From assembly GCA_029560455.1 (NCBI GenBank), contig JAKQKW010000273.1, positions 1-21,676 on the forward strand: a stretch of 21,676 nucleotides of DNA, in the 5' to 3' direction. Below the pieces are notes generated by a model that saw only the letters and a list, made by a program, of their open reading frames with translations, was not told the origin of the DNA and did no database searches. This document shows, piece by piece, positions 1 through 17,199 of the stretch. This stretch comes from Candidatus Rifleibacteriota bacterium. GTDB taxonomy: Bacteria > Riflebacteria > Ozemobacteria > Ozemobacterales > Ozemobacteraceae. How positions within the stretch are numbered: the first letter of the stretch is position 1; each line of letters begins with the position of its first letter. A program made the position numbers and the translations under genes.

Positions 1-348
1 GCCTGCGATGCCGGGGTGCTGTCACTCGGCTATTGCCCTTTTCGCGGCATCATCGCCGGCAGTAACCTCAATGCTGCCGGCACCGGCAACCCGCAGGCCA
101 TCAAAGAATTCTTTTCTGACTGCAATACGACGAAGTTTCCATGGAAAGCCACCAGTGTCGATTCGAGCACCGGCAAATTTGCGGTAACCGATTTCAAGGT
201 CATCAGCGCCTTTACTAACCCAGGTGAACGGCAACTGGTGATTTCGGCTCAAATAAAGGCTCTCGGTGAGGCCACCCTTAACCGTGGCAAAATGGAAACC
301 CGCAAGGAAGAAATGATCAAAACCGTTAAACTGACCAGGGAAAACTGA
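1..348 (+). CDS. C-terminal part of an exported/pilin-like protein (5' truncated)
   Basis: The reading frame is open from base 1 to TGA 346-348, so the true start lies left of the window; a GTG at 16 is only an internal codon. The visible 115 residues begin ACDAGVLSLGYC and are mostly hydrophilic. They contain two Cys near the start, Gly/Asn-rich stretches and a charged C-terminus (METRKEEMIKTVKLTREN). There is no visible membrane helix; one may lie in the missing N-terminus. The mix of small residues resembles the C-terminal part of pilin-like or TadE/G-like secreted proteins, but I do not recognise a family. The stop abuts the next gene, whose SD and start lie within 20 nt, so the two are probably co-transcribed. 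Confidence 0.6.
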   Translation, partial: ACDAGVLSLGYCPFRGIIAGSNLNAAGTGNPQAIKEFFSDCNTTKFPWKATSVDSSTGKFAVTDFKVISAFTNPGERQLVISAQIKALGEATLNRGKMETRKEEMIKTVKLTREN

Positions 349-365
349 TGTACCAGGGAGGAAGT

Positions 366-2945: not shown

Positions 2946-4651
2946 AGCAGACCGCGATTCTGCAGCCAGTCAAGCCAGCCGGAGGTTTTATCAAGAACCC
3001 CCGGTTTTGCTGTACTGAGGGTTCGCCCCAGCCCTGCCTGCCGCTGCAGCCGGATTTCATTCGCAGCCACACCGGCGGCTGCCAGAGCAACAACCTTGAG
3101 GGGAGCTAGCTGCCCGGCTTCACGGGCCCAGCGGTAATGAATATTCTCACAGAAAGCAGCATCGATACTCCCGGCGAGCTGCCGACAGTCAGCATCTGTG
3201 ATCTTACAAGCCCCTGCGGCACCGGCAAGAAAGAGACAATAATACGGCAATGCCGGCAATTCAGGCTTTTCTGGCGCCAGCCAGCTGCCGGCAAAGTCTG
3301 CCGCAAGCCGGGCAACGACCTCTTTTACCTGAGCCGAACTGAGCTTTTCGCCAACCAGATCAGATACGAAAGCTTCTTTGCCGACAAAGGCCAGACAGGG
3401 CAGATTCCGCCACCAGCCGCGCATTTCAATAATGTCATGCAGGCGATAACGGTAGAGACCGCCGGCAGTGGTCATCAGCACCCGGTAGCGCTGCCCGCTT
3501 ACCAGCTCATGCGCCAGTCTGATTGCGCCCACGCCGGTCTCACCCTCTTCAAATTCAAAGAATGCCGACCTTGCAGCGAGAACCGGTGCCGGTGCCCCGA
3601 CCATCGGTATGGTTACCGGGCCCTCAGTCGCCAGCAGCCCCTTTGTCTGAAATGCCGCGTCAGGGAAAAAGCTGCGCAGATATTCAGCCCCGGCGCCGGC
3701 TTCTGCCTCCGACCAGCTCGAAATCAATGCCAACTTCGGCCAGAGCTGCCGGGTAAAACCGACGCGGTCACCATTTTCAAACAATCTGAACGCTTCGATA
3801 AGAGCTTTCCCGCGGCCAGGCAAAGGCTTGCCCACATACAGCAGCAGAGCCGGGTCATTCAGTTCAGACGCAGATAAAAAAGCCGGGCGACAGGTGCCGT
3901 TTTCGAGATCATCGGCGAGCGATGCAAGCCATTCGCCGCATTGTGAGAACAGCGCCGTAAAAAGCGTCGGGTTCCAGAGAGAAATCAGGCGCATCTGCGA
4001 GTGGCGCAGCAGGCAAAGCAAGGTTACGTATTTCCAGACGGCCGGATTGCTGAGACTGGAAGCTTCTTCAGGAACCACAGTCACCAGGCCGATCAGCGGC
4101 TTTGCCCAGGCACCAAAATAATCTGAATCGGCGGCGAAGCCAATTGGCACACCGCCGGCGGTCATTCTTTTCTCAGACGTTCTTGGCGAAACCACCCAGT
4201 AGGCCGGGCCACCCCAGAGACTGCCGAAATGAGAAAACAGGTCGAAGAGCCATGGGTGCAGAGCCCGGTTGAAAGCCCTCTGCAGACCGGCAGTATAAGG
4301 AATCAGCCGATTCGGGCCCGAAGTGCCGCTCGTCTCTTCGAACATTCTCACCTGGTCACCGGTCAGAACACGCTCCTTACCGGCGGCGATAAGATCGATA
4401 TATGGCTTGAGATCGTCATAATCGTGCACTTTGACTCTGGCGCAGAACTCGTCTGCGTTGCCGATCGTGGCAAAATCATGCTGGCGGCCAAAGTCGGTCT
4501 GAATGGCATTCTGCAGCAGTTCAAGCAAAACCCGGTTTTGCACCCTGGCAAGACTGCTGTTGGCAGCACGCCTGAATTCCATTGCGCCACCAAGGCAGGT
4601 GCCCATCCAGATACCCTGAACCAGGCCCGTTGCAAGTCTGAAACCTGTCAT
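2942..4651 (-). CDS. GH3-family acyl-adenylate ligase (amide synthetase-like)
   Basis: 569 aa, a normal length for the GH3 (auxin-responsive promoter) family of ANL adenylating enzymes. GH3 enzymes activate a carboxylic acid with ATP and transfer the acyl group, typically to an amino acid. Visible motifs: the ATP/phosphate loop ETSGTSGPNRLIP (residues 106-118), the ATEG adenylation motif (341-344), and TTAGGLYRYRLHD (394-406), whose final Asp corresponds to the ribose-binding Asp. The EKLSS segment near 435 matches the start of the mobile C-terminal domain. The start ATG shares one base with the preceding gene's stop (TGATG), so translation is probably coupled. It is the last gene of a four-gene operon with a radical SAM enzyme and two acyltransferase-like proteins. 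The substrate is unknown. Its stop overlaps the stop of the convergent lipoprotein gene. Confidence 0.9.
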   Translation of the reverse strand: MTGFRLATGLVQGIWMGTCLGGAMEFRRAANSSLARVQNRVLLELLQNAIQTDFGRQHDFATIGNADEFCARVKVHDYDDLKPYIDLIAAGKERVLTGDQVRMFEETSGTSGPNRLIPYTAGLQRAFNRALHPWLFDLFSHFGSLWGGPAYWVVSPRTSEKRMTAGGVPIGFAADSDYFGAWAKPLIGLVTVVPEEASSLSNPAVWKYVTLLCLLRHSQMRLISLWNPTLFTALFSQCGEWLASLADDLENGTCRPAFLSASELNDPALLLYVGKPLPGRGKALIEAFRLFENGDRVGFTRQLWPKLALISSWSEAEAGAGAEYLRSFFPDAAFQTKGLLATEGPVTIPMVGAPAPVLAARSAFFEFEEGETGVGAIRLAHELVSGQRYRVLMTTAGGLYRYRLHDIIEMRGWWRNLPCLAFVGKEAFVSDLVGEKLSSAQVKEVVARLAADFAGSWLAPEKPELPALPYYCLFLAGAAGACKITDADCRQLAGSIDAAFCENIHYRWAREAGQLAPLKVVALAAAGVAANEIRLQRQAGLGRTLSTAKPGVLDKTSGWLDWLQNRGLL

Positions 4652-5376
4652 CAGCTCTTCAAAAGCCTTTTAACAAATGGTTTGAAGTTTTCCCAGCTGA
4701 GACGGGTAATGCAGGCGAGCTCATCACCGGCATCGTGACCGGGGTTCTTCTGCAGGAAAAAAGCGATGTGCTGATTCTGCAGGCGTTCCTGTGCCGGTTC
4801 GCTGATGCCGGCCCGCAGCGGCGTCGGATTCTTCAGCCTGACAATACCGGTATCGGGGTTGTAATCTTCGGCAAAAAGCTTCCGGGCGGCCAGATCGAGA
4901 ATATTTTGCATTGCCGCCGGTGTTTCGCGGTCAAAACATGGAAAAAATTCATTGAAATAAGCCGGCAGAAACCGGTAAGTTCGGTAACCACTCGAAATTA
5001 GAAACCAGTAGAGCGGTTTGTCGCCGGATGCCTGCAGTGTTTCATACATAAAGCGGCCCCAGACTCGCGGCAGTTCAAGGCTGCCCCAGAAATCGGGGTG
5101 TATGATTGTGTCACCGCTGAAAAGCACTCTGAATTCATCTTTGTCGGCGCACAGGTCGTAAATGGCGACCGAAGTGAAGCCACGCAGCTTTTTCTGTCCG
5201 TCTTCAAGCAGTATTACAGTATTTTTGCGCGCCAGATCAGCTAAAAAAGGAGCCTTTTCGACCTCATAAAATTCTGACATCAGAGCGAACATGGCTTCTT
5301 TTACAGCAGTATCGAGCTGCTGAACAGTCTGAGTGCGGCCATACAGGGTTCTGCCTGGTAAATTGTCGCTGGTCAT
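4651..5376 (-). CDS. GNAT-like acyltransferase-fold protein
   Basis: 241 aa. The central part (residues 50-140) has an acyltransferase-like strand/helix order: a strand with charged turn (TVILLEDGQKKLRGFTSVAIY), a strand leading into a conserved-looking FSGDTIIHPDFWG (87-98), then a helix, and PLYWFLISSGYRTYRFLPAYF (121-141). This arrangement recalls GNAT N-acetyltransferases, but the standard Q/RxxGxG/A acetyl-CoA loop is not obvious, so enzymatic activity is unproven. No signal peptide or membrane helix is seen. It overlaps the upstream GNAT gene by 4 nt (ATGA) and the GH3 gene by 1 nt, showing tight co-expression. It may load, modify or recognise the product made by its neighbours. Confidence 0.8.
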   Translation of the reverse strand: MTSDNLPGRTLYGRTQTVQQLDTAVKEAMFALMSEFYEVEKAPFLADLARKNTVILLEDGQKKLRGFTSVAIYDLCADKDEFRVLFSGDTIIHPDFWGSLELPRVWGRFMYETLQASGDKPLYWFLISSGYRTYRFLPAYFNEFFPCFDRETPAAMQNILDLAARKLFAEDYNPDTGIVRLKNPTPLRAGISEPAQERLQNQHIAFFLQKNPGHDAGDELACITRLSWENFKPFVKRLLKS

Positions 5377-6563
5377 AGGGCCCCAAGATTGGCAAGATGC
5401 AAAGGTCGGCCGGCAAATTCATGTTTGCCGGTTTCCGGCCAGAATACCTGATATATGATACTCCAGTACGGCAGAAAAAATACACTATTTATCGCCGCCA
5501 GCGCCGGAAATTTTTCGGCCATGCCAAGTGCCGCGAACATGGCACCCCGCTTTTTCGCTTCCTCGCAGACCGCTCTGATCAGAACCGGCATCACCATGCT
5601 TTCGAGGCCAGGCTCGGCCGCCCAGGGGTCGAGCAACACAAAGTCTACGCGCCCTCCGACTCCGGGAACCGGACAACGCCCCACCAGCATTTCGATAGAC
5701 CGCCAGAGCCTCTGCGCCAGCGCAAGAGGTCGACAAAGGTGATGCACGACGATCTGCCGGTAATGCTGCTGGTTCCAGATCCCGATCGCCCCGACCAGTT
5801 CGTCACCGGCAAAAACCCCGATCATGTCCTCAATTTTCAAACCGAAAAAACCGCGCAGACTACCGTCAGATTCGATTCGATCAACATAAGGCGCGCCCTC
5901 ATTGCGGTGCCCGGCACGCGCAAACAAGGCCACCAGCGCTGGCAGATCGCTGTTCTGCAGCATGCGGTGCGCAAACGTGCCCGGTTGCTGCGAACGGTAT
6001 TTCTGCGGCCAGCGGCGACCAGGGCCAGACAAAGGAATAAGGGCCGTCAGATAGCGTGAGACCTGCTGATAAACCGGCATGCCACCGCCAGCGCGTTCAG
6101 CTTCGAGCAACTGGCGGGCATAGTGATTTTCTTCGAGAATTGAAGTAAGAGTCACCGGCAGAGGCCGGTCAGCAAATATTTCGCGAAAGGCCCGATAACC
6201 CCGCAGCAAAAACGACCCACCTCTAATATCTGGGTGGAACCGCAGATGATGCAGATACCCGATGTCGGCCGCCTGCCCGCCGAGATATGCCCGGCGCACC
6301 GACCTGATGCCGAGACCGGCCAGCGTTGCAAAGCCTCGCGGCTGAATGAGAACAAGGTCATGCAGGTTTCCGAATGCGTTTAGAGCGGTAAAAAAAGAGG
6401 GTTCGGTCTGGTAATCGAGACCGATGAAACTGGCCGGCATCTGGCAGATACGGCCAAGATCGCGAATTTGAGCATCGAGACCGGCAAGCTCGGACAAAAG
6501 CTCTGCATCTGCACGGTCAGAAGCGAAGGTAAATTTTTCGACCGGCCCGGGCGACTTGCGCAT
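5373..6563 (-). CDS. GNAT-family N-acyltransferase-like protein
   Basis: 396 aa from ATG 6563, which overlaps the upstream stop as TGATG; a GTG three bases upstream (6566) is an alternative. The N-terminal half has a GNAT-like core: ADIGYLHHLRFHPDIRGGS (residues 99-117) gives the strand, then the R-x-x-G-type acetyl-CoA pyrophosphate loop and the following helix (FLLRGYRAFREIF), then an N-rich strand/turn (SILEENHYARQLLEAERAG). The C-terminal half has a second strand series with VDFVLLDPW and a helix (MVMPVLIRAVCEEAKKRGAMF), so the protein may hold two related acyltransferase folds. It is cytosolic by sequence. It sits second in the radical SAM/GNAT/GNAT-like/GH3 operon. The acyl acceptor cannot be predicted. 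Confidence 0.8.
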   Translation of the reverse strand: MRKSPGPVEKFTFASDRADAELLSELAGLDAQIRDLGRICQMPASFIGLDYQTEPSFFTALNAFGNLHDLVLIQPRGFATLAGLGIRSVRRAYLGGQAADIGYLHHLRFHPDIRGGSFLLRGYRAFREIFADRPLPVTLTSILEENHYARQLLEAERAGGGMPVYQQVSRYLTALIPLSGPGRRWPQKYRSQQPGTFAHRMLQNSDLPALVALFARAGHRNEGAPYVDRIESDGSLRGFFGLKIEDMIGVFAGDELVGAIGIWNQQHYRQIVVHHLCRPLALAQRLWRSIEMLVGRCPVPGVGGRVDFVLLDPWAAEPGLESMVMPVLIRAVCEEAKKRGAMFAALGMAEKFPALAAINSVFFLPYWSIIYQVFWPETGKHEFAGRPLHLANLGAL

Positions 6564-7921
6564 CACCTTTTAAAATCAGCCAGCAGGTGGTTTTCTTCGG
6601 GCAGCCCGAGCGGAATGCCGAATTTTTCGTCGACCTCGCGGCGGCCGTAATAATTCTGAGTCAGAAACAGCGCCAGAGTCGAAAGACTCTGCATATTGGT
6701 CATTGGCGCCAGAGCGCGTCTGATGATCGACTTCGTCGAGTAAAATTTGCGCCGGTAGTGGCGGCAGGTTTCGGCAAGCTCGCCAGGCGGCAGCATCTGC
6801 GGCCGGTATGGTACCTGACCGAAGCGAAAACTCTCTTCGAGCCACCAGGCGTCAGAAATCATGCGCCCCTGCCCTGCCAGCTTCGCATAGAGCGGCGTAC
6901 CGGGGAAAGGCACGAGATGGTTGAAAGCCACGAGAAAAAACTGATGCTTCATGGCGAATTTGAGGGTGCGCGGGAAAGAACTGACATCGTCGCCGTCTAC
7001 CCCGAAAAGGAAGGTAGCATAAACGCAGATATGATTCTGCTTAAGCAGTGCCAGCGAACGTTCGTAGAGCTCGACCGATTCATTGCTCTTCTTGTTCAGC
7101 GTGTTGAGAAGGTCAGAGCGAAGCGATTCAAACCCGATCAGAACCCCGACACAGCCGGCATCAGCCATCGCCTTGACCAAAGCCGGGTCGGCGGCGGCTT
7201 CGACGCTGATCTGGGTGACCCATTTCACATTCAGGGGCTGCAAGGCCCGGCACAAAGCAAAAACCGCTTCGGGGTTGGCGGCAATGTTGTCATCGATGAG
7301 AAAAACGATTTTCTGGCCGGTGCGCCTGATTTCTTCGGCGACTTCTTCGGGTGGTCTGAAATAGTGGCGCCCTTTTGCAAAAACCGTGATCGAGCAGAAA
7401 GAGCAATGGTGCGAACAGCCGCGTGAAAACTCGACAAGCGCCAGCGGCAGGTATTTTTTGTCGGCATAAACTTCACGTTTCGGGAAAACACCGCGCCACG
7501 GAAAATCAAACGAGCCATTATAGCGTTTCTGCAGGCGGCCGGCAGCCGCATCGGCAAGCACTCCGGACCAGACTCCCTCGGCTGGCCCGACCACGATCGC
7601 GTCAGCGTGCTTTTCGACTTCGTCAGGGCAGAGGCTGGCATGGTAACCGCCCATGACCACCTTTACGCCGCGTTTCTGGTAGGCAGCGGCGATCTGATAG
7701 GCGCGTCTGGCAGTATAGGTTTCGACGGTGATACCGACAAGATCGGCCGGAACGTCAGGATCGATAGGCTCGATGCGGTCATCCTGAATCGTGATCTGCC
7801 AGTCATCAGGGGTAAGAGATGCAAGAACAGCAAGAACCAGGGGTTCCATCTGCCAGGTGGCAATATATTTCTGGCCGGGTTTGCGCCCAATCGACGGCAT
7901 GATCAGGGTAAGCTTCTTCAT
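6563..7921 (-). CDS. B12-binding-domain radical SAM protein
   Basis: 452 aa. Residues 1-130 match the Rossmann-like cobalamin-binding domain seen in many radical SAM enzymes (DLVGITVETYTARRAYQIA; VVMGGYHASLCPDE; ADAIVVGPAEG). The DxHxxG ligand motif is missing, as in many members of this class. The radical SAM cluster is C169-x3-C173-x2-C176 (FSRGCSHHCSFC), followed by FLIDDNIAANPE and VGFESL, typical of the SAM barrel. The C-terminus has no recognisable accessory cluster. Such enzymes start radical chemistry (methylation, thioether formation, ring changes) on metabolites or peptides. It is the first gene of a four-gene operon with a sigma70-like promoter and hairpin leader upstream. Possible SD: GGTGGA eight bases before ATG 7921. 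Confidence 0.92.
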   Translation of the reverse strand: MKKLTLIMPSIGRKPGQKYIATWQMEPLVLAVLASLTPDDWQITIQDDRIEPIDPDVPADLVGITVETYTARRAYQIAAAYQKRGVKVVMGGYHASLCPDEVEKHADAIVVGPAEGVWSGVLADAAAGRLQKRYNGSFDFPWRGVFPKREVYADKKYLPLALVEFSRGCSHHCSFCSITVFAKGRHYFRPPEEVAEEIRRTGQKIVFLIDDNIAANPEAVFALCRALQPLNVKWVTQISVEAAADPALVKAMADAGCVGVLIGFESLRSDLLNTLNKKSNESVELYERSLALLKQNHICVYATFLFGVDGDDVSSFPRTLKFAMKHQFFLVAFNHLVPFPGTPLYAKLAGQGRMISDAWWLEESFRFGQVPYRPQMLPPGELAETCRHYRRKFYSTKSIIRRALAPMTNMQSLSTLALFLTQNYYGRREVDEKFGIPLGLPEENHLLADFKR

Positions 7922-8379: not shown

Positions 8380-10953
8380 TCAGGCGAAGGGGGCTTTGAG
8401 GATTTTTTCGAGTTCGCGGTTGCTGGCTTCGTCATCAGCAGAGGCTTCGGCGACGTTATCTTTGAAGAGCTGCAGCAGCGAGTTGGTCCAGTGCTGGTAA
8501 ATTGCCAGGCCGGGGTAAGCCCGTGCCGAAAGCGTCGCCTTTGGCGGGCCAGAGGGCACCTGCATTTCTTTCATTTCCTGGCCAAGACAGGTGATGTAAC
8601 GGTTCAGCGCCGTTGCCGCCCTGGCAGAAGCCTTGCGCAGAAAGCGACCCGGGTTCGGGGCATTGAAGACCTGATCACTCTCACCGGCAATCGCAGACTC
8701 AATCTTGAGGCGTGAAGCACCTTTGATCAGTTCCTGCGTCGTTTCGGCAAACCACTCGGCCGGCAAACCGGTCAGTTCCTGAAATTCAGCATCCTGACTC
8801 AAATAAGCCAACTGCGCCTGCCAGCGGTTCATCACCGCCTGGGCAAACACTTCGCCTTTGCGCACCACGGCCTTTTTAGGCGCGGACGCTTCGGCAGCCG
8901 GTGCCGCCGGTTCACCGACCGAAAAAATCGATTCATCGAAAACCGAGGTTTCGGCAGCAACCAGTGAAGGCTCGGCCGCTTCACCCTCTTCGCTTTCCAT
9001 CGGGTTTACAACCGAGTCAAAAATCATACCGACCGTCTTGTCAGAAATCGAGAACCGGTCGAGATCAAGAATGCGCGGTAAAGAATAGCGGGTGGCCATG
9101 CCTTTACCCAGTGTCAGCAGCAGTTTTTTCGCTCGTTCTTCGGCCATTTTTCGCGCATGCGAAATGTCGTCGCCAATAAAATACGGCTGCAGATGTGTTT
9201 TAAGCTCGGCGAAAATCTGCCTGAGATTCGCCTGCAGCTGCTTAACCTTGGCATCGGTTTCTATACCGGCTTTAAGACGCTCGACCAGATACTGAATACC
9301 TGATTGCCCTGGCGCTGCCGCCCGATTCCATGCCTCTTTCGCGTCGGCAAAATGCCGCTGCACGTTCTCGTTGCCTAAATACTGCGCCATGATCTCTGCT
9401 AACTGATCTTCATCTCTGACGAATTCTTTACCGTCTTTGTCACGGCCAAAGACCGTCTGCTGCACACCTGGGTTGCGCACCCAGTAGCAGTTTTGAAAAG
9501 CACGCCCTTCTTCCCACTCGGTTACCCAGCTGCCGGCCCGGCCCATAAAATCAGCAAAATTTGTTTTCAGACGGCTGTCCCAGCGCACTGAAGGGTCTTC
9601 GCCGCGCTTGCGCACCAGGTCCATATCGAATTTGGTAAACACGTGAAACAGCAGCGGCGTTTTGCCTTTGCGCTGCGCCGGTTCCTTGCCCTGGCTCCAT
9701 TCGACCCATTTGTTGACCATGTATGGCAGCGATTTGGCTTCCTGTGGGCCGCCTTCCTGGCAGAGCAGCAGAGCGGTAACATCACGGTCATCAGAATAGC
9801 GGTCGAAAAGATAGGCGACCTTGCCGCGCAGATATACCTCAACCAGCGCCTCATGGTCTTTCGTCAGGCGCTGCTGATCAAAAACCTGAGCACGGGCACG
9901 TGCACCGGGAAAATCGAGCACGTCGAACCGGCGCAGCAGCGACTCATCAGAGGCCGAAGCAGTCTGCAGAATCAGTTCGGCGGTCAGGGCACAAAGCGTC
10001 GATGAATCCATCGACACCTGCCCACCGCTGTTTAGTGCCAAAGCCACTTTTCGGTTGCCCACCTTCATCAGCTGCGACAGACGCTGAACATCGATTATGC
10101 TGTTGGTGCGCGGCAACAGAGAGTCATCATAAATGCCGACAACTTCGCCGCCAAGATTTCCCAGTTCCTTCTGCAAAAAGCGGAACAACTCGGTTATCTT
10201 CGGAAAACGGCCCCAGAGCCATTCAAGATAGCTGATCTGCTGGTCTGCCGGCAACAGCCTGATTTCGTCATTGAGAATGCCCCAGTAGTTGATATCTTCG
10301 AGCATGCGCAGAAACTGATTGTGAAAATGGCGCCGTGCATAATCCTGCAGGTCCCATACATCGGCTTCGGTAAGCAGACCTGGCCCACCAGACCGCCCGG
10401 AAACACCTCTGAACGAATAGCGCAGTTTCTGCAGCTCATCGGCAGTCGGCACAAAATCAGACTGACATTCGAACAGAAACCCGTTGAGAAAAATCTTGAT
10501 CAGATCGGTGATCGTCAGCAGCCGCAGAAATGCAGAACAGCCCTGCACCGTGCGATATGGCCTGGTGGTGAAGCGGGTGACCAGGGCCGTGCTTTCGCGA
10601 CCACCGGCCGGATTGATCTCTTCAAGATAATCGCGCCCGGCCGGGTTCTGGTTGAGCCCGTTGAGAAGCACCGAAAGGGAAGCTTCGCCGCCCCGCACCA
10701 GCTCAGAGGTCAGGTATGATTTGCCGCACTGGCTGGCTCCGAAGACGCCAAGAGCAACCGGTCGTTGCGCCGATTCTTTGATACGACGCACCGTCACCTG
10801 CTTTTCATGCAGGATTTTATCCATGAACTTTCTGATGGCCGCGTCTTTAAGATAGCCGGCAGCCCAGCCCGAGCTGCAGTTAAGCAGCTCGGTCAGCTGA
10901 TCTGACATGGTGACAATCTGCTGCTCTTCGGGGCGCATTTTACTCTGATTCAT
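8380..10953 (-). CDS. srfC: SrfC-like dynamin-type large GTPase
   Basis: 857 aa; matches the SrfC-type putative virulence-factor family. Residues 72-79 form a Walker A/G1 loop (GASQCGKS) after a hydrophobic strand. A candidate G2 Thr lies in GREST (118-122), G3 is DVLDFPG (344-350, DxPG rather than DxxG with a hydrophilic residue), and G4 is TKFD (440-443) in place of N/TKxD. The long gap between G1 and G3 and the helical, charged C-terminal half (roughly 530-857) fit a dynamin-like GTPase with an assembly stalk. There is no membrane helix, so membrane contact would depend on the stalk or on partners. Its ATG overlaps the SrfA-like stop (ATGA), so the two proteins are probably made together. 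It is the last gene of the operon. Confidence 0.85.
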   Translation of the reverse strand: MNQSKMRPEEQQIVTMSDQLTELLNCSSGWAAGYLKDAAIRKFMDKILHEKQVTVRRIKESAQRPVALGVFGASQCGKSYLTSELVRGGEASLSVLLNGLNQNPAGRDYLEEINPAGGRESTALVTRFTTRPYRTVQGCSAFLRLLTITDLIKIFLNGFLFECQSDFVPTADELQKLRYSFRGVSGRSGGPGLLTEADVWDLQDYARRHFHNQFLRMLEDINYWGILNDEIRLLPADQQISYLEWLWGRFPKITELFRFLQKELGNLGGEVVGIYDDSLLPRTNSIIDVQRLSQLMKVGNRKVALALNSGGQVSMDSSTLCALTAELILQTASASDESLLRRFDVLDFPGARARAQVFDQQRLTKDHEALVEVYLRGKVAYLFDRYSDDRDVTALLLCQEGGPQEAKSLPYMVNKWVEWSQGKEPAQRKGKTPLLFHVFTKFDMDLVRKRGEDPSVRWDSRLKTNFADFMGRAGSWVTEWEEGRAFQNCYWVRNPGVQQTVFGRDKDGKEFVRDEDQLAEIMAQYLGNENVQRHFADAKEAWNRAAAPGQSGIQYLVERLKAGIETDAKVKQLQANLRQIFAELKTHLQPYFIGDDISHARKMAEERAKKLLLTLGKGMATRYSLPRILDLDRFSISDKTVGMIFDSVVNPMESEEGEAAEPSLVAAETSVFDESIFSVGEPAAPAAEASAPKKAVVRKGEVFAQAVMNRWQAQLAYLSQDAEFQELTGLPAEWFAETTQELIKGASRLKIESAIAGESDQVFNAPNPGRFLRKASARAATALNRYITCLGQEMKEMQVPSGPPKATLSARAYPGLAIYQHWTNSLLQLFKDNVAEASADDEASNRELEKILKAPFA

Positions 10954-12167
10954 TTTGCATCTCCTGGTTTGACAGCTTCTGCAGCGGGCGGCCCGCCCGG
11001 TGCCGGAGTTCCGGCCGGAGCAGGCGCAGTCTGGCCCTGCTCATTGTTATGCCCTGAATTTGAACCGCCCTGATTATGACCGGTCGACTGGCCGCCGCTC
11101 TCCGGTACATGATGACCGCAGGTCGGGCAGGTAGAACCGGGCGCAGGGACCTGGCCGCCCTTGTTTCCGCCGGGCGCGCCATTACCTTTTCCGAGGCCGG
11201 GCAAACCACCTCCGCCACCGCCGCCTCCACCACCAAGCAGGTCGCTGAGGTCACCAAGACCACCGCCACCACCACTTCCGCCCATACCGCCGATGCCCGG
11301 CGGCAGTTGCGGGAAGGCTGACTGCGGCGGCGGCACCAGGCGCAACAGCAGAAGCAGCAGAATAATGATCGCAAGAATTATCGCCAGCCATTTAACCCAG
11401 CGGTAAGCACCCAGCCCGCAGGCGAGCATACGCTTTTCTTTTTCTTCTGCCGCAGGGGTCGTTTCCGGCTTTTTTGCCACCGGCGGTTTCGCAGATTCTG
11501 CCGTCTTGGCCGGTGCGGCCGCGGTTGCCACTGCAGCGGCTGCCGCTGCTTTTTCCGGTTCTTTTACCGGCTGTGACTCGGGGTAAGGCGGGGGCTCTGG
11601 TGGCAAAACCACTGGCTGAGGCTGCGGTTGCGACTGATCGGCTGTTTTTTTGCCGGCCTTGCGCTGAATTTCGGCAATAAAGTCATCCCAGCCGGCATAA
11701 ATGCCTTTTCCCGGGTGGTTGCCGTCTTCGTTGATAAAGCCCCAGTGAACGAGCACCGGCTGGTTTTTAACGATAAAAATCTGGTTCATATCGGGCGAAA
11801 CGGCTACAGACTTGAGATATTCGGCATAATCCTTCTCTTTGCCCGTGCGACCCTGCTTCTCTTCGGCATATTTTCTGATACGGTCAAGCGAGCGCCCGAT
11901 CTGATCGGCAACCGCCTGCTGCCGTTCAGCCGGCAGATCTTTGAACATGGTCTTTTCGCCCTCAATGGCGGTTGACCATTCTATTTCACCAGGCTGAGCC
12001 TGGCCGTCAACCACATTTTCGGGGCGGGCAAAAAAGTTGTCGAGCTCACCGCCCGGGGCGATCTCACGCAGAACCGCCTGCAGATGCCCATAAAACTGGT
12101 GCACCGGCTGATTGCGGAAAAAACTGGTGCGAAAGCCTTTGGTTAAAGTTCTGGCGATTATTCCCAT
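10950..12167 (-). CDS. srfA: SrfA-like membrane protein with glycine-rich tail
   Basis: 405 aa. SD GGAGG (12174-12178) lies six bases before ATG. The N-terminal domain (1-170) has EIEWSTAIEG and IFIVKNQPVLVHWGFIN, which match what I recall of SrfA family N-domains (W-containing strand, then a 'KPVL..WGF' strand). A Pro/Ala/Lys linker (175-245) leads to one transmembrane helix (257-279). Beyond it comes an exported or cytosolic Gly-rich tail (290-340, with a run of nine Gly) and a CPTCGHH motif (347-353). The lack of a signal peptide suggests an N-in single-pass protein, leaving the Gly tail outside. It is co-translated with SrfC. The SrfA call rests on remembered motifs plus context, so it is less certain than SrfB or SrfC. 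Confidence 0.65.
   Translation of the reverse strand: MGIIARTLTKGFRTSFFRNQPVHQFYGHLQAVLREIAPGGELDNFFARPENVVDGQAQPGEIEWSTAIEGEKTMFKDLPAERQQAVADQIGRSLDRIRKYAEEKQGRTGKEKDYAEYLKSVAVSPDMNQIFIVKNQPVLVHWGFINEDGNHPGKGIYAGWDDFIAEIQRKAGKKTADQSQPQPQPVVLPPEPPPYPESQPVKEPEKAAAAAAVATAAAPAKTAESAKPPVAKKPETTPAAEEKEKRMLACGLGAYRWVKWLAIILAIIILLLLLLRLVPPPQSAFPQLPPGIGGMGGSGGGGGLGDLSDLLGGGGGGGGGGLPGLGKGNGAPGGNKGGQVPAPGSTCPTCGHHVPESGGQSTGHNQGGSNSGHNNEQGQTAPAPAGTPAPGGPPAAEAVKPGDAK
11206..11291 (-). repeat. GC-rich low-complexity tract encoding the Gly-rich tail
   Basis: A run of CCN/GGN-type triplets encodes the poly-glycine segment of the SrfA-like protein, including nine consecutive Gly codons (11206-11234) and a second block at 11260-11291. 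Codons vary at the third base, so this is protein low complexity rather than a pure microsatellite. Replication slippage could change its length among strains. Confidence 0.7.
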
Positions 12168-12192
12168 GCCAAGCCTCCGTTAATTACCCTGC

Positions 12193-12960
12193 TCATGTCA
12201 GCACCTGCCCGAGGCGAACGACGCGATTGCCCTCGCGCAGTACCACAATAAAACCGTGCATTTCGCGAATCTGCCGGCCAGAGGTCGAAGAGCCGGCAAT
12301 ACGTTCGTGATACTGCGGGTTGAAGGGCTCGCCTTCCATACTCAAAAAAGAGTGAACTTCAGATATACCCGAAAGAAACCGCGAAACCGCCTTCAGCAGC
12401 TTTTTTCGCGCCGGGTGGGCAAAACCTGCCAGGCTCTGCAGAAATCTGTCACCAAGCACATTGAGCACAAACAGTTTCTGTTCAGGCGTTCCGATTCTCA
12501 GAAACTTTTTAATCGGAAAAACGCCGGCCATAGCCCAGATAACCCGCGCCTGATCGTCTGAACCGGTTATCTCGCCGTAGATTTCCTTGAAAGCAGCGAG
12601 CGCCTCTGCTTCAGTCGGTTCAGACAGCCTGAACTGTGCCCAAAAAGAATCCGGGCGCAGGCCGCCTGCGGTTGCAGCCGGCATTGAAGCAGCTGCGGCC
12701 GGTACAGCAGAATCTGCGACAGCAACATCTGGTATTACCGGCAGGTCTTCTGCGAGAGCCACACTCTGCTGACCCGCATCTGCGGCGACACTTCTGCCGG
12801 CACGGTAGGCCTTGAGCATGCCACGCAGATCGCGCAGTTCATCATCACCAAGAGGAGGTTCGCCAACGACCGGGAAAGCAGGCAGTTCGACGCCGCCAGC
12901 CGCTTTCTTCTCATCTTCAGCGACCGTCGGAAAAGGAAACAATTCGTTAGTTTCGCTCAT
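12193..12960 (-). CDS. Conserved-looking SrfAB-associated protein, unknown family
   Basis: 255 aa. SD GGGGAG lies seven bases before ATG 12960. Residues 1-100 are acidic, Ala/Val/Pro-rich and probably disordered. Residues 101-255 look folded: an all-helical part (AFKEIYGEI, VIWAMAGVFPIKKFL, PEQKLFVLNVLGDRFLQSLAGF, RKKLLKAVSRFLSGI) followed by a basic beta-rich end (YHERIAGSSTSGRQIREMHGFIVVLREGNRVVRL). No membrane segment or catalytic motif is visible. It lies between srfB (17 nt upstream) and the SrfA-like gene (25 nt downstream). It is therefore probably a structural or adaptor subunit of the same complex. The canonical enteric srfABC order has no gene here. Confidence 0.8.
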   Translation of the reverse strand: MSETNELFPFPTVAEDEKKAAGGVELPAFPVVGEPPLGDDELRDLRGMLKAYRAGRSVAADAGQQSVALAEDLPVIPDVAVADSAVPAAAASMPAATAGGLRPDSFWAQFRLSEPTEAEALAAFKEIYGEITGSDDQARVIWAMAGVFPIKKFLRIGTPEQKLFVLNVLGDRFLQSLAGFAHPARKKLLKAVSRFLSGISEVHSFLSMEGEPFNPQYHERIAGSSTSGRQIREMHGFIVVLREGNRVVRLGQVLT

Positions 12961-12976
12961 TTTCTAACTCCCCCTC

Positions 12977-15721
12977 TTAAAGATCGAAACAGCCCGTATC
13001 GAGCCAATACTGGTCTGAAACCATGGTGCGCAGACGCAGCTGGGCACTTTTCTGATTACATTTTGTCCCCTTCGCATCAAGAAGCTCGGCGACCGCAAGA
13101 CACTCGCGGTTGTTGTTATCCTGGTTCAGCTTAACCAGATACGGGCCGCTGCCCTTGAGCGAGTCAGCATCCAGAACAACTTCCCATAACGGGTTAACCA
13201 TACAGACTTCAGAATCGATGCGGCGAATGCCAAGCAGTGCATTTTTGCTCACCTGCAGCTGCGCCGGAGCGGAAGCCGGTGTCGGAAACAGGCACTGTTC
13301 GATATTCATCGTCTCGCGCGCAAAGGTGCCGATAAAGCACTCGCGCTGGCGAATCAGGCTGCTGTCTGTGGTCAGACTCATGCCATCGAGACAGTTGAGC
13401 TTTTCGGCAAACAGCCAGACGGCACCGCCCATGACGCAGGTGGTCTTGGGGTCGGCAATACCGCCGCCCCGCTGCGAAAACGGATACCAGCTGCCCACCG
13501 GGTAACCCTTCAACCCGATTATACGGGCGGGCTGCACCGGCATCAGGCGCACGAGCATTTCTCTGATGATCGGCAGCGATGACGGCTTACCGCCAAGAAT
13601 CAGGGTATCGCAGTCAAACTGCGCGATTACCTCGGCAAAAATACGCATGACGTTTTCGAGAACATTGGCGATTACGGCATTAACCTTAGGGCGCGAGATC
13701 TGCCACGGAATCTCGGGCAGTGTTATGTCGCAGCCAAAATCGCGACGCATGTGCTCGGCAAAAAAGTCGAGCACCCCGGCACCCGGCATACGATTCGGGA
13801 AAAACCGGTCGAAACTGAGTTCGATATCAGGGTCTTCACTGTCGAGCTCGGCAAATTCAAGGTGGCGATGTGCCATCGGAATCCAGAGCTGGCGACACAG
13901 TTCAGCTTTCATATCGTTGAAACTCTTGTCACGCCCGCCGCGGCCGGGCCCGAAGAAAATCTGAAAGTCTTCCCATGAAATGTTGGGGTTTTTCTGCTGC
14001 GCCCAGCTGAAAATGCGTCTGAGAATCAGTTTCTCGATAACCCGTTTGGCAATTTCGTCGCCGGCAATCGAAAAGCCTTCCGAGAACAGCATTTTCTGTC
14101 TGATCAGCATCGGCTGCGCCGCGTCAGCATGGTATTCGGCAATCATCAGATCGCTAGTACCCCCGCCAATATCGATGCTGGCAACCCTGACCATTTTGCC
14201 GGCCGTGTCAGCCCGCAAGCGGCCAAGCGTTTCAACCGCTTCGCCGGCATTGCCGAGAAATCGGTGCATAACTTCGCCATAAAGCCAGGTGAGCTGAACA
14301 GCGGTTGCTTCGTCCAGGTTCAGTTCGACATCGGGCCTGGTTTCGGGGTCTCTGCCCGTCACATGAAAAAACAGATCGAGGGCAGAATCCACCCGCTGCC
14401 GGTATAGATTCTTTTCTGGAAATGACATGCCGCAGGGTGTCGTCATGACGATATTCTTCAACCGGCGACCGGCCTGACGATGCCCGCGAGAACGCCGGTA
14501 TGAATACGAATTGATCTGGGCATAAGCATGACAGAGAATCTCGGTCATCAGAAAGGTCATCAGTGAACTTGGCGGATAGCAGGGCTCAAATGGCGGAGTT
14601 GCCTTTTCGCCCATGAACACGCCATTTTCATCGAGATATTTCAGAAACGGCGCCCCGATTTTTTTGCCCAGCCCGTCGCCTGGCAGGTTGAAATACCACG
14701 GAAAATGCCGTTGCTGTTCATCCCACAGGTAGCGTTTCGGGCTCGACATGCCGGTATCACCGATATCAGAAGGTTCCTGGCGGGCCGCTTCATGGCCCAG
14801 GCGAAGAATTCCGGGCCAGGCAAACCGGTTGCCGGCGGCCGGAATCTGATAATCGCTACCGCTGAAAAGCGGCGGCTGAAATTTGAAACTGGTATCGAAA
14901 GGCTCGGTATAAACAGTGCAGGGTTCCTGCAGATCACGAATTTCGAGTTTGCAGCATTCATCGAGACTGACCGGCCGCCCGGGAATCTGCTCGATGAGAA
15001 CACCACAGGCCCGGCTGTTGCCAAGATCGAGAACAAGACTGACATCGATCGCCTCACCCTCTGGGCGAAGCATGGTTACTTCAGGCAACAGGGCGGCCTG
15101 CTGCAGGCCATCCATCAGTGTCATAAAAGCGGCCAGAGAAGCCGCATAGGGTGGAACCTTCTCGCTGCCTTCGGCCGGCACGTTCTGCAGGGCGCTCTTA
15201 ATCCAGTTCAGCATTGCCGGAGTCTGCCAGAATGACAGATTGCCGGGGTTGATGATGAAAGTCTGGCCGACGTCTTCACTCAGCAGGCCGGTGCCGCCTT
15301 TACCATCGGCGGCGGCATCTGCGCAGACTGAAGTATCTACGGCAATCGCGTAATTGATGATGTTGTCGTCGAGCTGCAGCAGCGGGCGCTGCAGAAAAAT
15401 TCGCGCCCAGTCGACACTACGCGAACTGCCGCAGCCATCGACAGTTTTGCGGCCGAAAGGCAGAGGCAGCCATTTGCCAAGGGCAGCGGCAAGAGCGTCG
15501 CCAAAACACACCGACAGGCCGCCGATATCTTTGAGATCGGTGCCCCCGGCAGCGGCATTGACAATTGGCTCAGTACCAAGTTGCAGACTGATTGCCGAGC
15601 TTGGTGACTGCAGCACTCTGAAATGCCATTTTTTGCCGAGCAGCATGTCAGAAAGGCGCAGTTCGTTGTCTGGAGCGTAAAATGAAATTCCGGTTTCGAC
15701 AAGAAATTCGATTTTTTCCAT
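12977..15721 (-). CDS. srfB: SrfB-like Hsp70/actin-type ATPase
   Basis: 914 aa, close to the roughly 900-1000 aa of SrfB proteins. It carries the split ATP-binding signature of the actin/Hsp70 superfamily: phosphate-1 VLDLGNSRACG (230-240), phosphate-2 ASIDIGGGTSD (514-524) and the adenosine motif DTLILGGKPSSLP (705-717). Residues 1-225 form an SrfB-specific N-domain. A long insert of about 280 residues separates phosphate-1 and phosphate-2. There is no signal peptide or membrane helix. It starts 3 nt after the stop of the small membrane protein gene, with weak SD GAAGG upstream. As an ATPase in one operon with a dynamin-like GTPase and membrane proteins, it may drive assembly or remodelling of a membrane complex; the actual mechanism is unknown. 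Confidence 0.9.
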   Translation of the reverse strand: MEKIEFLVETGISFYAPDNELRLSDMLLGKKWHFRVLQSPSSAISLQLGTEPIVNAAAGGTDLKDIGGLSVCFGDALAAALGKWLPLPFGRKTVDGCGSSRSVDWARIFLQRPLLQLDDNIINYAIAVDTSVCADAAADGKGGTGLLSEDVGQTFIINPGNLSFWQTPAMLNWIKSALQNVPAEGSEKVPPYAASLAAFMTLMDGLQQAALLPEVTMLRPEGEAIDVSLVLDLGNSRACGVLIEQIPGRPVSLDECCKLEIRDLQEPCTVYTEPFDTSFKFQPPLFSGSDYQIPAAGNRFAWPGILRLGHEAARQEPSDIGDTGMSSPKRYLWDEQQRHFPWYFNLPGDGLGKKIGAPFLKYLDENGVFMGEKATPPFEPCYPPSSLMTFLMTEILCHAYAQINSYSYRRSRGHRQAGRRLKNIVMTTPCGMSFPEKNLYRQRVDSALDLFFHVTGRDPETRPDVELNLDEATAVQLTWLYGEVMHRFLGNAGEAVETLGRLRADTAGKMVRVASIDIGGGTSDLMIAEYHADAAQPMLIRQKMLFSEGFSIAGDEIAKRVIEKLILRRIFSWAQQKNPNISWEDFQIFFGPGRGGRDKSFNDMKAELCRQLWIPMAHRHLEFAELDSEDPDIELSFDRFFPNRMPGAGVLDFFAEHMRRDFGCDITLPEIPWQISRPKVNAVIANVLENVMRIFAEVIAQFDCDTLILGGKPSSLPIIREMLVRLMPVQPARIIGLKGYPVGSWYPFSQRGGGIADPKTTCVMGGAVWLFAEKLNCLDGMSLTTDSSLIRQRECFIGTFARETMNIEQCLFPTPASAPAQLQVSKNALLGIRRIDSEVCMVNPLWEVVLDADSLKGSGPYLVKLNQDNNNRECLAVAELLDAKGTKCNQKSAQLRLRTMVSDQYWLDTGCFDL

Positions 15722-15724
15722 GAA

Positions 15725-15937
15725 TTATCTGCCTTCGGTGATGGTTTTTGGATCGGCAGCAGGCTTTTCAGCCGGAGCCGGCCAGTCGAGTGCCGCGCGG
15801 CATGGCCAGTACATGATAAAGGCAGCAAAAGCCAGCAGCGGAAACTGCATCAGATATGCGATAACAAAAAATTCGACAATGACCACCCCGCACCAGATCA
15901 GCAGTGTCTGATTTATAATTCTTTCCTGCTCCTGCAT
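15725..15937 (-). CDS. Small two-helix membrane protein
   Basis: 70 aa. The N-terminus (MQEQERIINQT) is hydrophilic; residues 12-32 and 33-46 form one or two transmembrane helices (LLIWCGVVIVEFFVIAYLM; FPLLAFAAFIMYW). The tail (PAPAEKPAADPKTITEGR) is Pro/Ala-rich like the linkers of neighbouring proteins. It sits between the Sel1-repeat gene (20 nt) and srfB (3 nt), so it is an operon member and not noise. It may anchor or dock SrfB-type partners at the membrane. A start SD is suggested by CGGAGGG (15947-15953 on the minus strand), nine bases before ATG. Confidence 0.75.
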   Translation of the reverse strand: MQEQERIINQTLLIWCGVVIVEFFVIAYLMQFPLLAFAAFIMYWPCRAALDWPAPAEKPAADPKTITEGR

Positions 15938-15957
15938 CGATTACCCTCCGGGCAGGT

Positions 15958-17199
15958 CTAGGCCTGCAGAATTTCTTTCAGCAAGGTTTTTGCTTCTTTG
16001 TGCCCCTGAGCCGCCGCTTTCTGCAGCCAGCTGTTGGCTTTCTCAAGACTGAATTCAACACCCATACCACACTGGTAAAGGGTGCCGAGATAAAACTGTG
16101 CATGCATATCGCCAGCATCGGCGGCAAGTCTGAACCAATTGGCTGCGGTGGCAAAATCCTGTTTTACCCCCAGCCCCTTGTGGTAGATTTCGCCAATCAT
16201 GCGGCGTGCGACAATTGAACCAAGTTTGGCCGCCTGCTGCAGCATTTGCAGCGCCAGCGGCACGTCGACGCGGGTGCCATAACCTGGCAGCAGCGTTTTG
16301 GCCTGAGCGACCAGCTCTTCGGCACTGCCGGTGAGAACCACCGGCGCGGCCGGCTTGGGCGGCGCAGCCGGGGCAGCAGGAACTGCCGGTCTGGCTGCAG
16401 GTTGAGTTGGTCTGGGCTGAGATGCCGGCGATTTTGCCTGGGTAGCCGGCTGCTGCGTTGCCGGTTTTGCGGGTGCGCCGCCATGAACGGCACTTTGCGG
16501 CACACTGGCTTTGACCGGTTGCGCCGCGGCCTGAGGCGATTGTACAGACTGCGATGCTGCAGTCGGAACAGACTGAGCAGTTGCGGCGCCGGCGGACTTA
16601 ACCACTGTCTGCCGCTTTCTGGGCGCGGCGGCAAAAAAGGCCGATTCACCTGATTTTTCTGATTTAACTGGAGTTGCTGCCAGGCCGGCGCAGTCTGCTT
16701 CGGGCAGCGGACGCCACCAGGCGCTGAAAACCTTTATAACACCGCTGGCATCGGTGCCAAAAATGAGACCGGCGCGGTTCTTTTCGAACAACCGCATGGT
16801 TTCGGCACTTAAAGTCGGAGTAGCGGCAGATTGAGCTGCAGGCTGCGATACCTCAGCAACTGAATCGGGTGAGGCTTCGACCTTCAGTCCGAGAGAAATT
16901 GCCCAGGACTCGACAGCCCAGGCGGCCAGGGCCGGGTTAACAGGGTGTTTGCGGCCTATTCCGGCTGCCAGAGAATTGATCAGCGAGCGCGAAACGAGCC
17001 CGGCATAGCCCTTCTGCAGTTCCCATGGTATGCGTTCCTGCAGACCGGCACGCAAAGCGGTTGTTTCTGGTGACTGCGCCAGGTTGCCTGCTTTCTGCAG
17101 CATGCGCTCAAAAATATCGGGGCTCTGAAAAACAGTTGCGTCTTTGCGCCCGACCAGCTCGCACAGAACCTTGAGTATTCGCTCCCTTGAAGTATCCAC
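15958..17199 (-). CDS. Sel1-repeat protein with WAVESWA module and Pro/Ala/Gln linker
   Basis: 413 aa, start GTG 17199. Residues 1-105 are helical and end in LAAWAVESWAISLGL, a module that recurs in many bacterial multidomain proteins. Residues 135-175 hold a short folded segment (LIFGTDASGVIKVFSAWW). Residues 200-290 are an Ala/Pro/Gln/Ser-rich linker. Residues 300-413 hold Sel1-like repeats (GEIYHKGLGVKQDFATAANWFRLAADAGD and GTLYQCGMGVEFSLEKANSWLQKAAAQGH), usually protein-binding scaffolds. There is no signal peptide, so it is probably cytosolic. As the first gene after a good promoter, it is the lead gene of the srf operon here and may be an adaptor that recruits the ATPase or GTPase. Confidence 0.85.
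   Translation of the reverse strand: MDTSRERILKVLCELVGRKDATVFQSPDIFERMLQKAGNLAQSPETTALRAGLQERIPWELQKGYAGLVSRSLINSLAAGIGRKHPVNPALAAWAVESWAISLGLKVEASPDSVAEVSQPAAQSAATPTLSAETMRLFEKNRAGLIFGTDASGVIKVFSAWWRPLPEADCAGLAATPVKSEKSGESAFFAAAPRKRQTVVKSAGAATAQSVPTAASQSVQSPQAAAQPVKASVPQSAVHGGAPAKPATQQPATQAKSPASQPRPTQPAARPAVPAAPAAPPKPAAPVVLTGSAEELVAQAKTLLPGYGTRVDVPLALQMLQQAAKLGSIVARRMIGEIYHKGLGVKQDFATAANWFRLAADAGDMHAQFYLGTLYQCGMGVEFSLEKANSWLQKAAAQGHKEAKTLLKEILQA

What the first reader, a model, noticed from the sequence alone, without database searches (positions are those of the whole stretch)
8380..17199. SrfABC-type locus with three extra components in a rearranged order
The operon has SrfB (split Hsp70/actin-type ATPase), SrfC (dynamin-like GTPase) and an SrfA-like membrane protein, together with a Sel1-repeat protein, a 70-aa membrane protein and a 255-aa unknown protein. 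The order is Sel1, small TM, SrfB, 255-aa, SrfA, SrfC, unlike the enteric srfA-srfB-srfC. An ATPase and a GTPase encoded with membrane anchors suggest a nucleotide-driven membrane machine. The enteric systems are annotated as virulence-associated, and a SrfABC toxin has been reported from Xenorhabdus, but the mechanism is unsettled.
Basis: partly seen in the sequence, partly recalled or inferred. Interest (0 to 1): 0.8.

Follow-up and report, generated by a model that had tools for sequence, protein, structure and literature searches.

The report
Membrane ATPase operon with own GrpE-like partner
A bacterium carries a six-gene version of the poorly understood SrfABC system in which the unexplained gene looks like a dedicated nucleotide-exchange helper for the Hsp70-like ATPase SrfB, which suggests that the system is a chaperone-type engine working with a dynamin-like protein at the membrane.

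Summary
The six-gene minus-strand operon is real. SrfB and SrfC give Pfam E-values of about 1e-148 and 1e-150; the SrfA-like protein is a relative but scores under the curated cut-off. The source is probably a Riflebacteria genome (inferred from homologue names).

The new result concerns the "255-aa unknown". It belongs to a family whose C-terminal half is predicted to fold like GrpE, the nucleotide-exchange factor of the Hsp70 DnaK. All nine best Foldseek rows are GrpE. The profile comparison with GrpE beats 200 of 200 shuffles and 41 of 41 other families, but its absolute probability is only 35% and no Pfam GrpE match is seen.

Relatives sit directly after srfB in six Bacteroidota loci. In 198 genomes of one Bacteroidota order, 9 of 10 with this gene have SrfB (13 have SrfB); leaving out the five used to build the profile, 4 of 5.

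SrfB aligns better with DnaK than with MreB and keeps DnaK-type catalytic residues in 37 of 37 rows. SrfC is predicted dynamin-superfamily.

Best reading: SrfB is an Hsp70-type ATPase recharged by its own GrpE-like factor, acting with a dynamin-like NTPase on a membrane anchor. Exchange activity and cell function are inferred. A new variant of a known but unexplained system.

The parts
15958..17199 (-). Sel1-repeat protein (413 aa, GTG start): N-terminal domain of unknown fold, Pro/Ala-rich linker, C-terminal Sel1 repeats
   Evidence: Pfam Sel1 E 2.4e-19; no TM segment; 15 relatives of residues 1-120, two sharing a contig length with GrpE-like clusters and one with an SrfB cluster
15725..15937 (-). 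70-aa small membrane protein (hydrophobic segment residues 12-30, about 15848-15904)
   Evidence: no family hit
12977..15721 (-). SrfB, Hsp70-type ATPase (914 aa): ~225-aa N-terminal extension, nucleotide-binding domain, C-terminal part of untested fold
   Evidence: PF07520 E 1.7e-148; profile-profile match to DnaK over 453 columns, E 1.4e-7
15026..15028 (-). SrfB D232 (phosphate-1 loop LDLGNSR)
   Evidence: invariant in 37 of 37 rows; aligned with the DnaK phosphate-1 loop
14735..14737 (-). SrfB K329, aligned with DnaK K70
   Evidence: invariant in 37 of 37 rows; alignment
14309..14311 (-). SrfB E471, aligned with the E of the DnaK NEPTAA motif
   Evidence: invariant in 37 of 37 rows; alignment
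14150..14173 (-). SrfB phosphate-2 motif DIGGGTSD (residues 517-524)
   Evidence: D517, G519-521, T522 and D524 invariant in 37 of 37 rows
12193..12960 (-). GrpE-like protein (255 aa), candidate nucleotide-exchange factor of SrfB
   Evidence: AlphaFold model mean pLDDT 74, ten-residue blocks from 111 on at 86-94; 9 of 9 best PDB rows are GrpE; hhalign against GrpE with nulls; relatives directly after srfB in Bacteroidota
12355..12630 (-). predicted helical bundle of the GrpE-like protein (about residues 111-202)
12196..12354 (-). predicted GrpE-like beta domain (about residues 203-255), with FNPQYHER ... NRVVRLGQVLT
10950..12167 (-). SrfA-like single-pass membrane protein (405 aa): N-domain (cytoplasmic side inferred), Pro/Ala linker, TM 260-278 (about 11334-11390), Gly-rich tail
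   Evidence: NF040486 E 1.4e-10; residues 1-175 match 41 ORFs
8380..10953 (-). SrfC, dynamin-superfamily NTPase (857 aa)
   Evidence: PF10139 E 6.2e-150; model pLDDT 81.6; Foldseek SynDLP E 1.4e-8, BDLP, Drp1, Mfn1
10714..10740 (-). SrfC P-loop (G1) GASQCGKSY, residues 72-80
   Evidence: G72, G77, K78 invariant in 35 of 35 rows
9904..9915 (-). SrfC G3 motif DFPG, residues 347-350
   Evidence: D347 and P349 invariant in 35 of 35 rows, G350 in 34

Best explanation
The operon encodes a membrane-bound, nucleotide-driven machine built round an Hsp70-type ATPase. SrfB binds and hydrolyses ATP like DnaK. The 255-aa protein is its own GrpE-type exchange factor: its beta domain docks on the SrfB nucleotide-binding domain and opens it so that ADP leaves and the cycle restarts. 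SrfB with this factor acts on SrfC, a dynamin-like NTPase that assembles at the membrane, and SrfA is the single-pass anchor that holds the complex at the inner membrane and carries the system's outer part. The Sel1 protein and the 70-aa membrane protein are scaffolds or further anchors. Supported here by computation: homology and predicted fold of SrfB, SrfC and the GrpE-like protein; conserved catalytic residues; adjacency and co-occurrence of the GrpE-like gene with SrfB. Inferred: binding to SrfB, exchange activity, action on SrfC, topology, and the cell process served (envelope remodelling or protein handling).
For: GrpE-like protein: its AlphaFold model (25-row alignment) matches only GrpE in the first nine Foldseek rows (six PDB entries, E 1.3e-3 to 0.25, probability up to 1.00); the first other fold is at E 1.3. 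hhalign against 18 ordinary GrpE proteins: score 33.8, E 4e-4, aligning FNPQYHER with FDPNAHQA and RVVR with RVIR. Nulls: 200 column-shuffled GrpE profiles reach at most 22.9; 41 other families from SrfB loci reach at most 24.1 against the window's family and 26.0 against GrpE. A family member lies directly after srfB in L002, L097, L098, L100, L101 and L105; window-type profile against the profile of these six: E 1e-7. In 198 genomes of one Bacteroidota order 13 have SrfB, 10 have the GrpE-like gene and 9 have both (Fisher p 6.5e-12). Five of the nine gave rows to the search profile; without these five genomes 4 of 5 carriers have SrfB (8 of 193 have SrfB; p 6.1e-6). Neither p is corrected for kinship. 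On a 60-row SrfB tree the trait needs 2 changes. Among homologue clusters 11 of 61 GrpE-like ones share an exact longest-contig length with one of 52 close SrfB clusters, and CVV42_04630 and CVV42_04635 are a near-consecutive pair. SrfB: better fit to DnaK than to MreB, catalytic residues invariant in 37 of 37 rows. SrfC: dynamin superfamily. Xenorhabdus SrfA, SrfB and SrfC are reported to form a heteromeric complex (PMC6950479, abstract and first quarter of the text seen).
Against: The GrpE link is remote: hhalign probability 34.8%, 27.7% with the joint family; no PF01025 hit at E<=10; no GrpE row in the PDB sequence search with the joint profile; no Foldseek row reaches E 1e-3; VIA Z for GrpE (6.1) ties with designed helical bundles. 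The six Bacteroidota relatives compared with GrpE on their own are not significant (score 15.8; L002 alone E 0.24), so they reach GrpE only through the window's family. The long N-terminal dimer helix of GrpE is not predicted in the window's protein. No such gene was found in the other SrfB loci held nor in four SrfB genomes searched whole (G003, G336, G415, G472), so SrfB can work without it; ordinary GrpE is present in 18 of 18 SrfB genomes tested and might serve SrfB. One genome has the GrpE-like gene but no SrfB match (G476). No complex was modelled and nothing was measured.
Confidence: 0.5

Rival explanations
1. The 255-aa protein is GrpE-derived but no longer an exchange factor: its GrpE-like domain is a docking adaptor that ties SrfB to SrfA, SrfC or the Sel1 scaffold.
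For: The long N-terminal helix of GrpE is not predicted in the window's version, which has a low-confidence N-terminus with a conserved short motif NELFPFP ... LPAFP that looks like a peptide ligand (inference). Many SrfB loci have no such gene.
Against: The C-terminal beta domain, the part of GrpE that touches the Hsp70 nucleotide-binding domain (recalled), is among the best conserved parts.
Confidence: 0.25
2. The system is a trans-envelope signalling or secretion-regulating complex of the TagQRST/PpkA type, and SrfB/SrfC switch a sensor rather than remodel membrane. (Not exclusive of the exchange-factor reading.)
For: A cluster with vWA signature appears 18 times, a TagS-like one 17 times and a TagR-like one 16 times within 5 genes before to 7 after SrfB in the 56 neighbourhoods printed; in the representative L024 Pfam gives vWA, ABC transporter and FGE-sulfatase domains. 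A TssR-like vWA protein lies upstream in L002. The link to tagQRST and ppkA was reported for host-associated Deltaproteobacteria (PMC3608642, passages seen).
Against: None of these genes was recognised among the ten window flank ORFs given to Pfam, and many enteric loci lack them on the stretch held.
Confidence: 0.25
3. SrfABC is a tripartite toxin or virulence factor.
For: Reported for Xenorhabdus: E. coli lysates and the separate proteins act on insect and HeLa cells (PMC6950479); Pfam names the families virulence factors.
Against: The parts look like ATPase, dynamin-like and GrpE-like machinery. SrfB loci occur in genera that I recall as free-living, such as Methylococcus, Sedimentitalea and Terasakiella (names). 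Release of any of the six proteins was not tested here.
Confidence: 0.05
4. The operon is an anti-phage defence system using a dynamin-like NTPase at the membrane.
For: Multi-NTPase membrane operons with patchy distribution (13 of 198 genomes in one order) are typical of defence (recalled). A Sir2-family gene and a pentapeptide-repeat gene lie 1-3 kb upstream; the latter has a sub-threshold match to an anti-phage effector (E 0.0096).
Against: No PADLOC hit at E<=0.01 for any of the six; the flanking genes named have no family match over cut-off that is specific to defence.
Confidence: 0.1

Closest known systems
SrfABC of Salmonella, Xenorhabdus and other Pseudomonadota
   Same: SrfB (PF07520), SrfC (PF10139) and an SrfA-type anchor with the same N-domain
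   Different: different gene order; extra GrpE-like, Sel1 and 70-aa genes; SrfB 24-31% identical to the 61 loci found; no Tag/vWA genes recognised in the window flanks tested
GrpE, nucleotide-exchange factor of DnaK (PF01025)
   Same: predicted helical bundle plus C-terminal beta domain with an F-[DN]-P-x-x-H signature; gene paired with an Hsp70-type ATPase
   Different: not recognised by PF01025; no long N-terminal helix predicted in the window's version; partner would be SrfB, and an ordinary GrpE exists besides in the SrfB genomes tested
DnaK / Hsp70 (PF00012)
   Same: nucleotide-binding domain with aligned K70 and NEPTAA-glutamate residues and both phosphate loops
   Different: ~225-aa N-terminal extension, large inserts, C-terminal part not shown to be a substrate-binding domain
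Bacterial dynamin-like proteins (SynDLP, BDLP) and mitofusins
   Same: G domain and adjoining helices, about 340 of 857 residues aligned with Fzo1/Mfn1; P-loop and DxPG
   Different: degenerate G4 motif in the family; about 8-14% identity; low whole-chain TM-scores; EHD ATPases also match, so the nucleotide is uncertain
srfBC-tagQRST-ppkA neighbourhoods of host-associated Deltaproteobacteria (PMC3608642)
   Same: SrfB and SrfC core
   Different: that locus has T6SS-type signalling genes; no GrpE-like gene was found in the Desulfovibrio loci held here

Membership tests
SrfABC system | SrfB family protein | tested here: met
   PF07520 496.9 bits, cut-off 27.1
SrfABC system | SrfC family protein | tested here: met
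   PF10139 501.6 bits, cut-off 28.1
SrfABC system | SrfA family protein | tested here: inconclusive
   NF040486 E 1.4e-10 but 41 bits against a cut-off of 150; N-domain homology to 41 ORFs in SrfB loci
SrfABC system | gene order srfA-srfB-srfC | tested here: not met
   order is Sel1, small TM, SrfB, GrpE-like, SrfA, SrfC; order also varies elsewhere
GrpE family (PF01025) | match to the curated profile | tested here: not met
   no PF01025 match at E<=10 for 7 family members, the L002 relative and the L047 candidate (HMMER filters drop most matches above about 0.1)
GrpE family (PF01025) | GrpE fold, C-terminal beta domain on a helical bundle | tested here: met
GrpE family (PF01025) | long N-terminal helix that forms a dimer | tested here: not met
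   residues 57-100 pLDDT under 50, longest N-terminal helix 39-61; the Bacteroidota relatives carry extra N-terminal sequence that looks coiled-coil, not modelled
GrpE family (PF01025) | ADP/ATP exchange on an Hsp70 | not testable with these tools
   needs biochemistry
Hsp70 superfamily (SrfB) | phosphate-1 and phosphate-2 loops, Lys70- and Glu171-type catalytic residues | tested here: met
   alignment with DnaK, residues invariant in 37 of 37 rows; the roles of these residues are recalled
Hsp70 superfamily (SrfB) | C-terminal substrate-binding domain | not tested
Dynamin superfamily (SrfC) | dynamin-type G domain and helical stalk by fold | tested here: met
Dynamin superfamily (SrfC) | G4 motif for guanine | tested here: inconclusive
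   TKFD in the window, but K and D vary in the 35-row alignment

The most novel reading that the evidence does not exclude
SrfB founds a separate line of Hsp70 machines that does not fold proteins in general: with its own GrpE-type exchange factor it drives the assembly and disassembly of a dynamin-like NTPase on a membrane anchor, a bacterial counterpart of Hsp70-driven coat removal coupled to dynamin. The GrpE-like gene would be the first assigned co-chaperone of any SrfABC system (as far as the searches show).
Probability: 0.3. Interest if true: 0.8.

Novelty: new variant of a known kind. Interest (0 to 1): 0.6.

Why it matters
SrfABC carries the label 'virulence factor' but its function was still called unclear in PMC3608642 (passage seen). 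A GrpE-type partner for SrfB gives a concrete, testable enzymatic cycle (ATP hydrolysis and ADP release) and argues that SrfB works as an Hsp70 rather than as an actin-like polymer. It moves the system from virulence annotation towards envelope or chaperone biology, and would add an Hsp70 and exchange-factor pair dedicated to a dynamin-like partner.

Tried and rejected
Toxin and defence readings: no PADLOC hit, no support in the window. SrfB as an actin-like filament protein: DnaK fits better than MreB, but MreB also aligns (E 5.2e-6), so this is a preference, not an exclusion. HMMER search of solved structures with the SrfB profile: 0 matches at E<=1; with the joint GrpE-like profile: 6 chance-level rows and no GrpE. 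Viral contigs: none of 25 pattern matches encodes a relative. The L002 protein searched alone in 295 genomes of its class found only itself; the joint profile A5 was needed. Planctomycete SrfB search: 9 of 246 genomes, 4 over the cut-off, mostly short matches in other proteins of about 1140-1440 aa, not followed. The 208-aa gene after srfB in L047 was considered as a further exchange factor and not kept: no match to the A5 profile at E<=1. In 5 of the 61 loci my ORF picking found no SrfB-labelled ORF. The 70-aa gene was not tested in other genomes. Alignments are selections of mine: SrfB 37 rows (window plus 36 of 120 listed hits), GrpE-like 25 rows (window plus 24 of 61), SrfC 35 rows (window plus 34 of 43 ORFs of 780-1000 aa). 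For the tree I dropped 11 near-duplicate loci from 62 SrfB ORFs over 740 aa and added 9 Riflebacteria-type rows; it is a quick LG+G4 search and two Planctomycete rows are long branches. In one search I labelled all nine Riflebacteria-type rows as carriers although only three (the window, P0076, P0083) have evidence; with the other six unlabelled the count is still 2 changes, and with only the four absences tested in whole genomes it is 1.


Full report
WHAT IS THERE. The window holds six minus-strand ORFs at the stated coordinates with gaps of 20, 3, 16 and 25 bp and one 4-bp overlap: Sel1 protein, 70-aa membrane protein, SrfB, a 255-aa protein, an SrfA-like protein and SrfC. Pfam gives SrfB E 1.7e-148, SrfC E 6.2e-150 and Sel1 E 2.4e-19. 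NCBIfam gives SrfA_fam E 1.4e-10, under its curated cut-off; the first 175 residues of the SrfA-like protein without the linker nevertheless match 41 ORFs at E<=0.01 among the ORFs picked in 71 SrfB loci. By a simple hydropathy scan one TM segment each is found in the SrfA-like and 70-aa proteins and none in the other four. No whole genome is held for the window.

SOURCE. Of 61 relatives of the 255-aa protein, 8 carry a taxon name, 7 of them Riflebacteria-type names and one 'Erysipelotrichia'. Of 120 listed SrfB hits (239 in all, with only the 7996 best candidates scored), the first 52 stand at 47-96% identity and the rest near 30%; 11 of these 52 carry a taxon name: 6 Riflebacteria or Rifleibacteriota, 3 Ozemobacter(aceae) (same phylum by recall) and 2 'bacterium'. 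The window is therefore most likely from that phylum; this is inference.

IT BELONGS WITH SRFB. In the Bacteroidota MAG locus L002 a 329-aa gene lies between srfB and srfC. It is the top hit of the window family's profile among 976 ORFs of 61 loci (E 2.7e-4, next 0.016), and hhalign gives E 1.6e-5. Searching SrfB in 198 genomes of that order gave 13 with SrfB. Of ten fetched neighbourhoods five have the gene directly after srfB (L097, L098, L100, L101, L105); L104 and L106 run straight from srfB to srfC, L099 and L103 are cut by a contig end, and in L102 another gene follows. Searching the joint profile A5 in the 198 genomes gave 10 with the gene: 9 also have SrfB, one (G476) does not, and four SrfB genomes (G003, G336, G415, G472) lack it; Fisher p 6.5e-12. 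Five of the nine (G002, G327, G345, G364, G392) supplied rows of A5 and so are not independent: without them 4 of 5 carriers have SrfB, against 8 of 193 genomes, p 6.1e-6. Neither value is corrected for kinship. In those four (G001, G366, G374, G378) the two genes lie on different contigs. On a 60-row SrfB tree the nine Bacteroidota rows whose genomes have the gene form one clade (support 100) and the Riflebacteria-type rows another (support 100); the trait needs 2 changes, shuffled mean 15.7 (two changes also when six unproven Riflebacteria rows are left unlabelled). Absence elsewhere was judged from the stretches held, in whole genomes only in that order. Within the window's phylum 11 of 61 GrpE-like clusters share an exact longest-contig length with one of the 52 SrfB clusters, and one pair has the tags CVV42_04630/04635. 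Two of 15 Sel1 clusters share contig lengths with GrpE-like clusters (8495, 16378) and one with an SrfB cluster (14249). So these two extra genes are not private to this genome; the 70-aa gene was not tested.

RELATED ARCHITECTURES. In the 56 neighbourhoods printed, a vWA-type cluster appears 18 times, a TagS-like one 17 times and a TagR-like one 16 times near SrfB, mostly in Pseudomonadota; many enteric loci, Salmonella L036 among them, lack them on the stretch held. The domain names rest on Pfam for one representative, L024; the Tag names come from PMC3608642 (passages seen) and recall. In L002 the SrfA-like protein has NF040486 E 3.4e-35 and a subtilase domain E 3.4e-45 in one chain; L101 and L105 hold relatives. 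So the anchor's outer part varies between lineages while the SrfB/SrfC core stays, which suggests a cytoplasmic engine coupled to different outer parts (inference).

MECHANISM. Best reading: an Hsp70-type ATPase cycle (SrfB) reset by a dedicated GrpE-like factor, coupled to a dynamin-like NTPase (SrfC) at an SrfA anchor. Complex formation of SrfA, SrfB and SrfC is reported for Xenorhabdus (PMC6950479; abstract and part 1 of 4 of the text seen). Exchange activity, the action on SrfC and the cell process are inferred. My confidence that the 255-aa protein is GrpE-like is about 0.85, that it serves SrfB about 0.7, and in the whole mechanism about 0.5. The rivals on signalling and on an adaptor role are not exclusive of parts of it.

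LITERATURE. Searches: SrfABC (37 papers, 20 listed), SrfB/SrfC (20 listed), SrfB with Hsp70/dynamin (20 listed), SrfB with GrpE (7 papers, listing only, none whose title concerns this link), Riflebacteria terms (15 listed), exchange-factor terms and family accessions. In what was listed or opened (PMC6950479, PMC3608642, PMC11258249; the last is about unrelated Rickettsia proteins called Srf) no GrpE-like partner for SrfB is proposed. The library holds only open-licence PMC papers.

Noticed in passing
L002:16568-19003; relatives in L101:14228-16777 and L105:277-2679: A Bacteroidota SrfA-like anchor (NF040486 E 3.4e-35) carries a subtilase domain (Peptidase_S8) after its membrane segment, so the outer half of SrfA can be a protease. 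L023:15556-18423 also has a subtilase domain in the corresponding gene.
   Followed up: partly
window 2942-7921 (minus strand): Four closely packed genes downstream: B12-binding radical SAM protein, a 397-aa protein with a weak GNAT match, a 241-aa protein with no family hit, and a GH3 protein with a sub-threshold match to the lyso-ornithine lipid synthetase OlsH: perhaps an aminolipid pathway.
   Followed up: no
window 348-2945 (+): 865-aa protein with a hydrophobic N-terminus and no Pfam or NCBIfam match.
   Followed up: no
L002:4755-7238: A TssR-like vWA protein (TssR is a T6SS part of Bacteroidota, recalled) lies upstream of SrfB, a second link between SrfB loci and T6SS-type genes.
   Followed up: no
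L080 (G001): A second, weaker GrpE match (E 9.2e-11) besides the ordinary GrpE in a genome that also has the SrfB-type GrpE-like gene.
   Followed up: no
L102 (G366), L001 (G001): Some Bacteroidota SrfB genes have no SrfC-labelled gene beside them on the stretch held, so SrfB may act without an adjacent SrfC or the set is scattered.
   Followed up: no
L119-L124, L127-L132: Planctomycete genomes hold large proteins (open frames of 1136-1438 aa) that match only the phosphate-2 part of SrfB, perhaps another Hsp70-like family.
   Followed up: no
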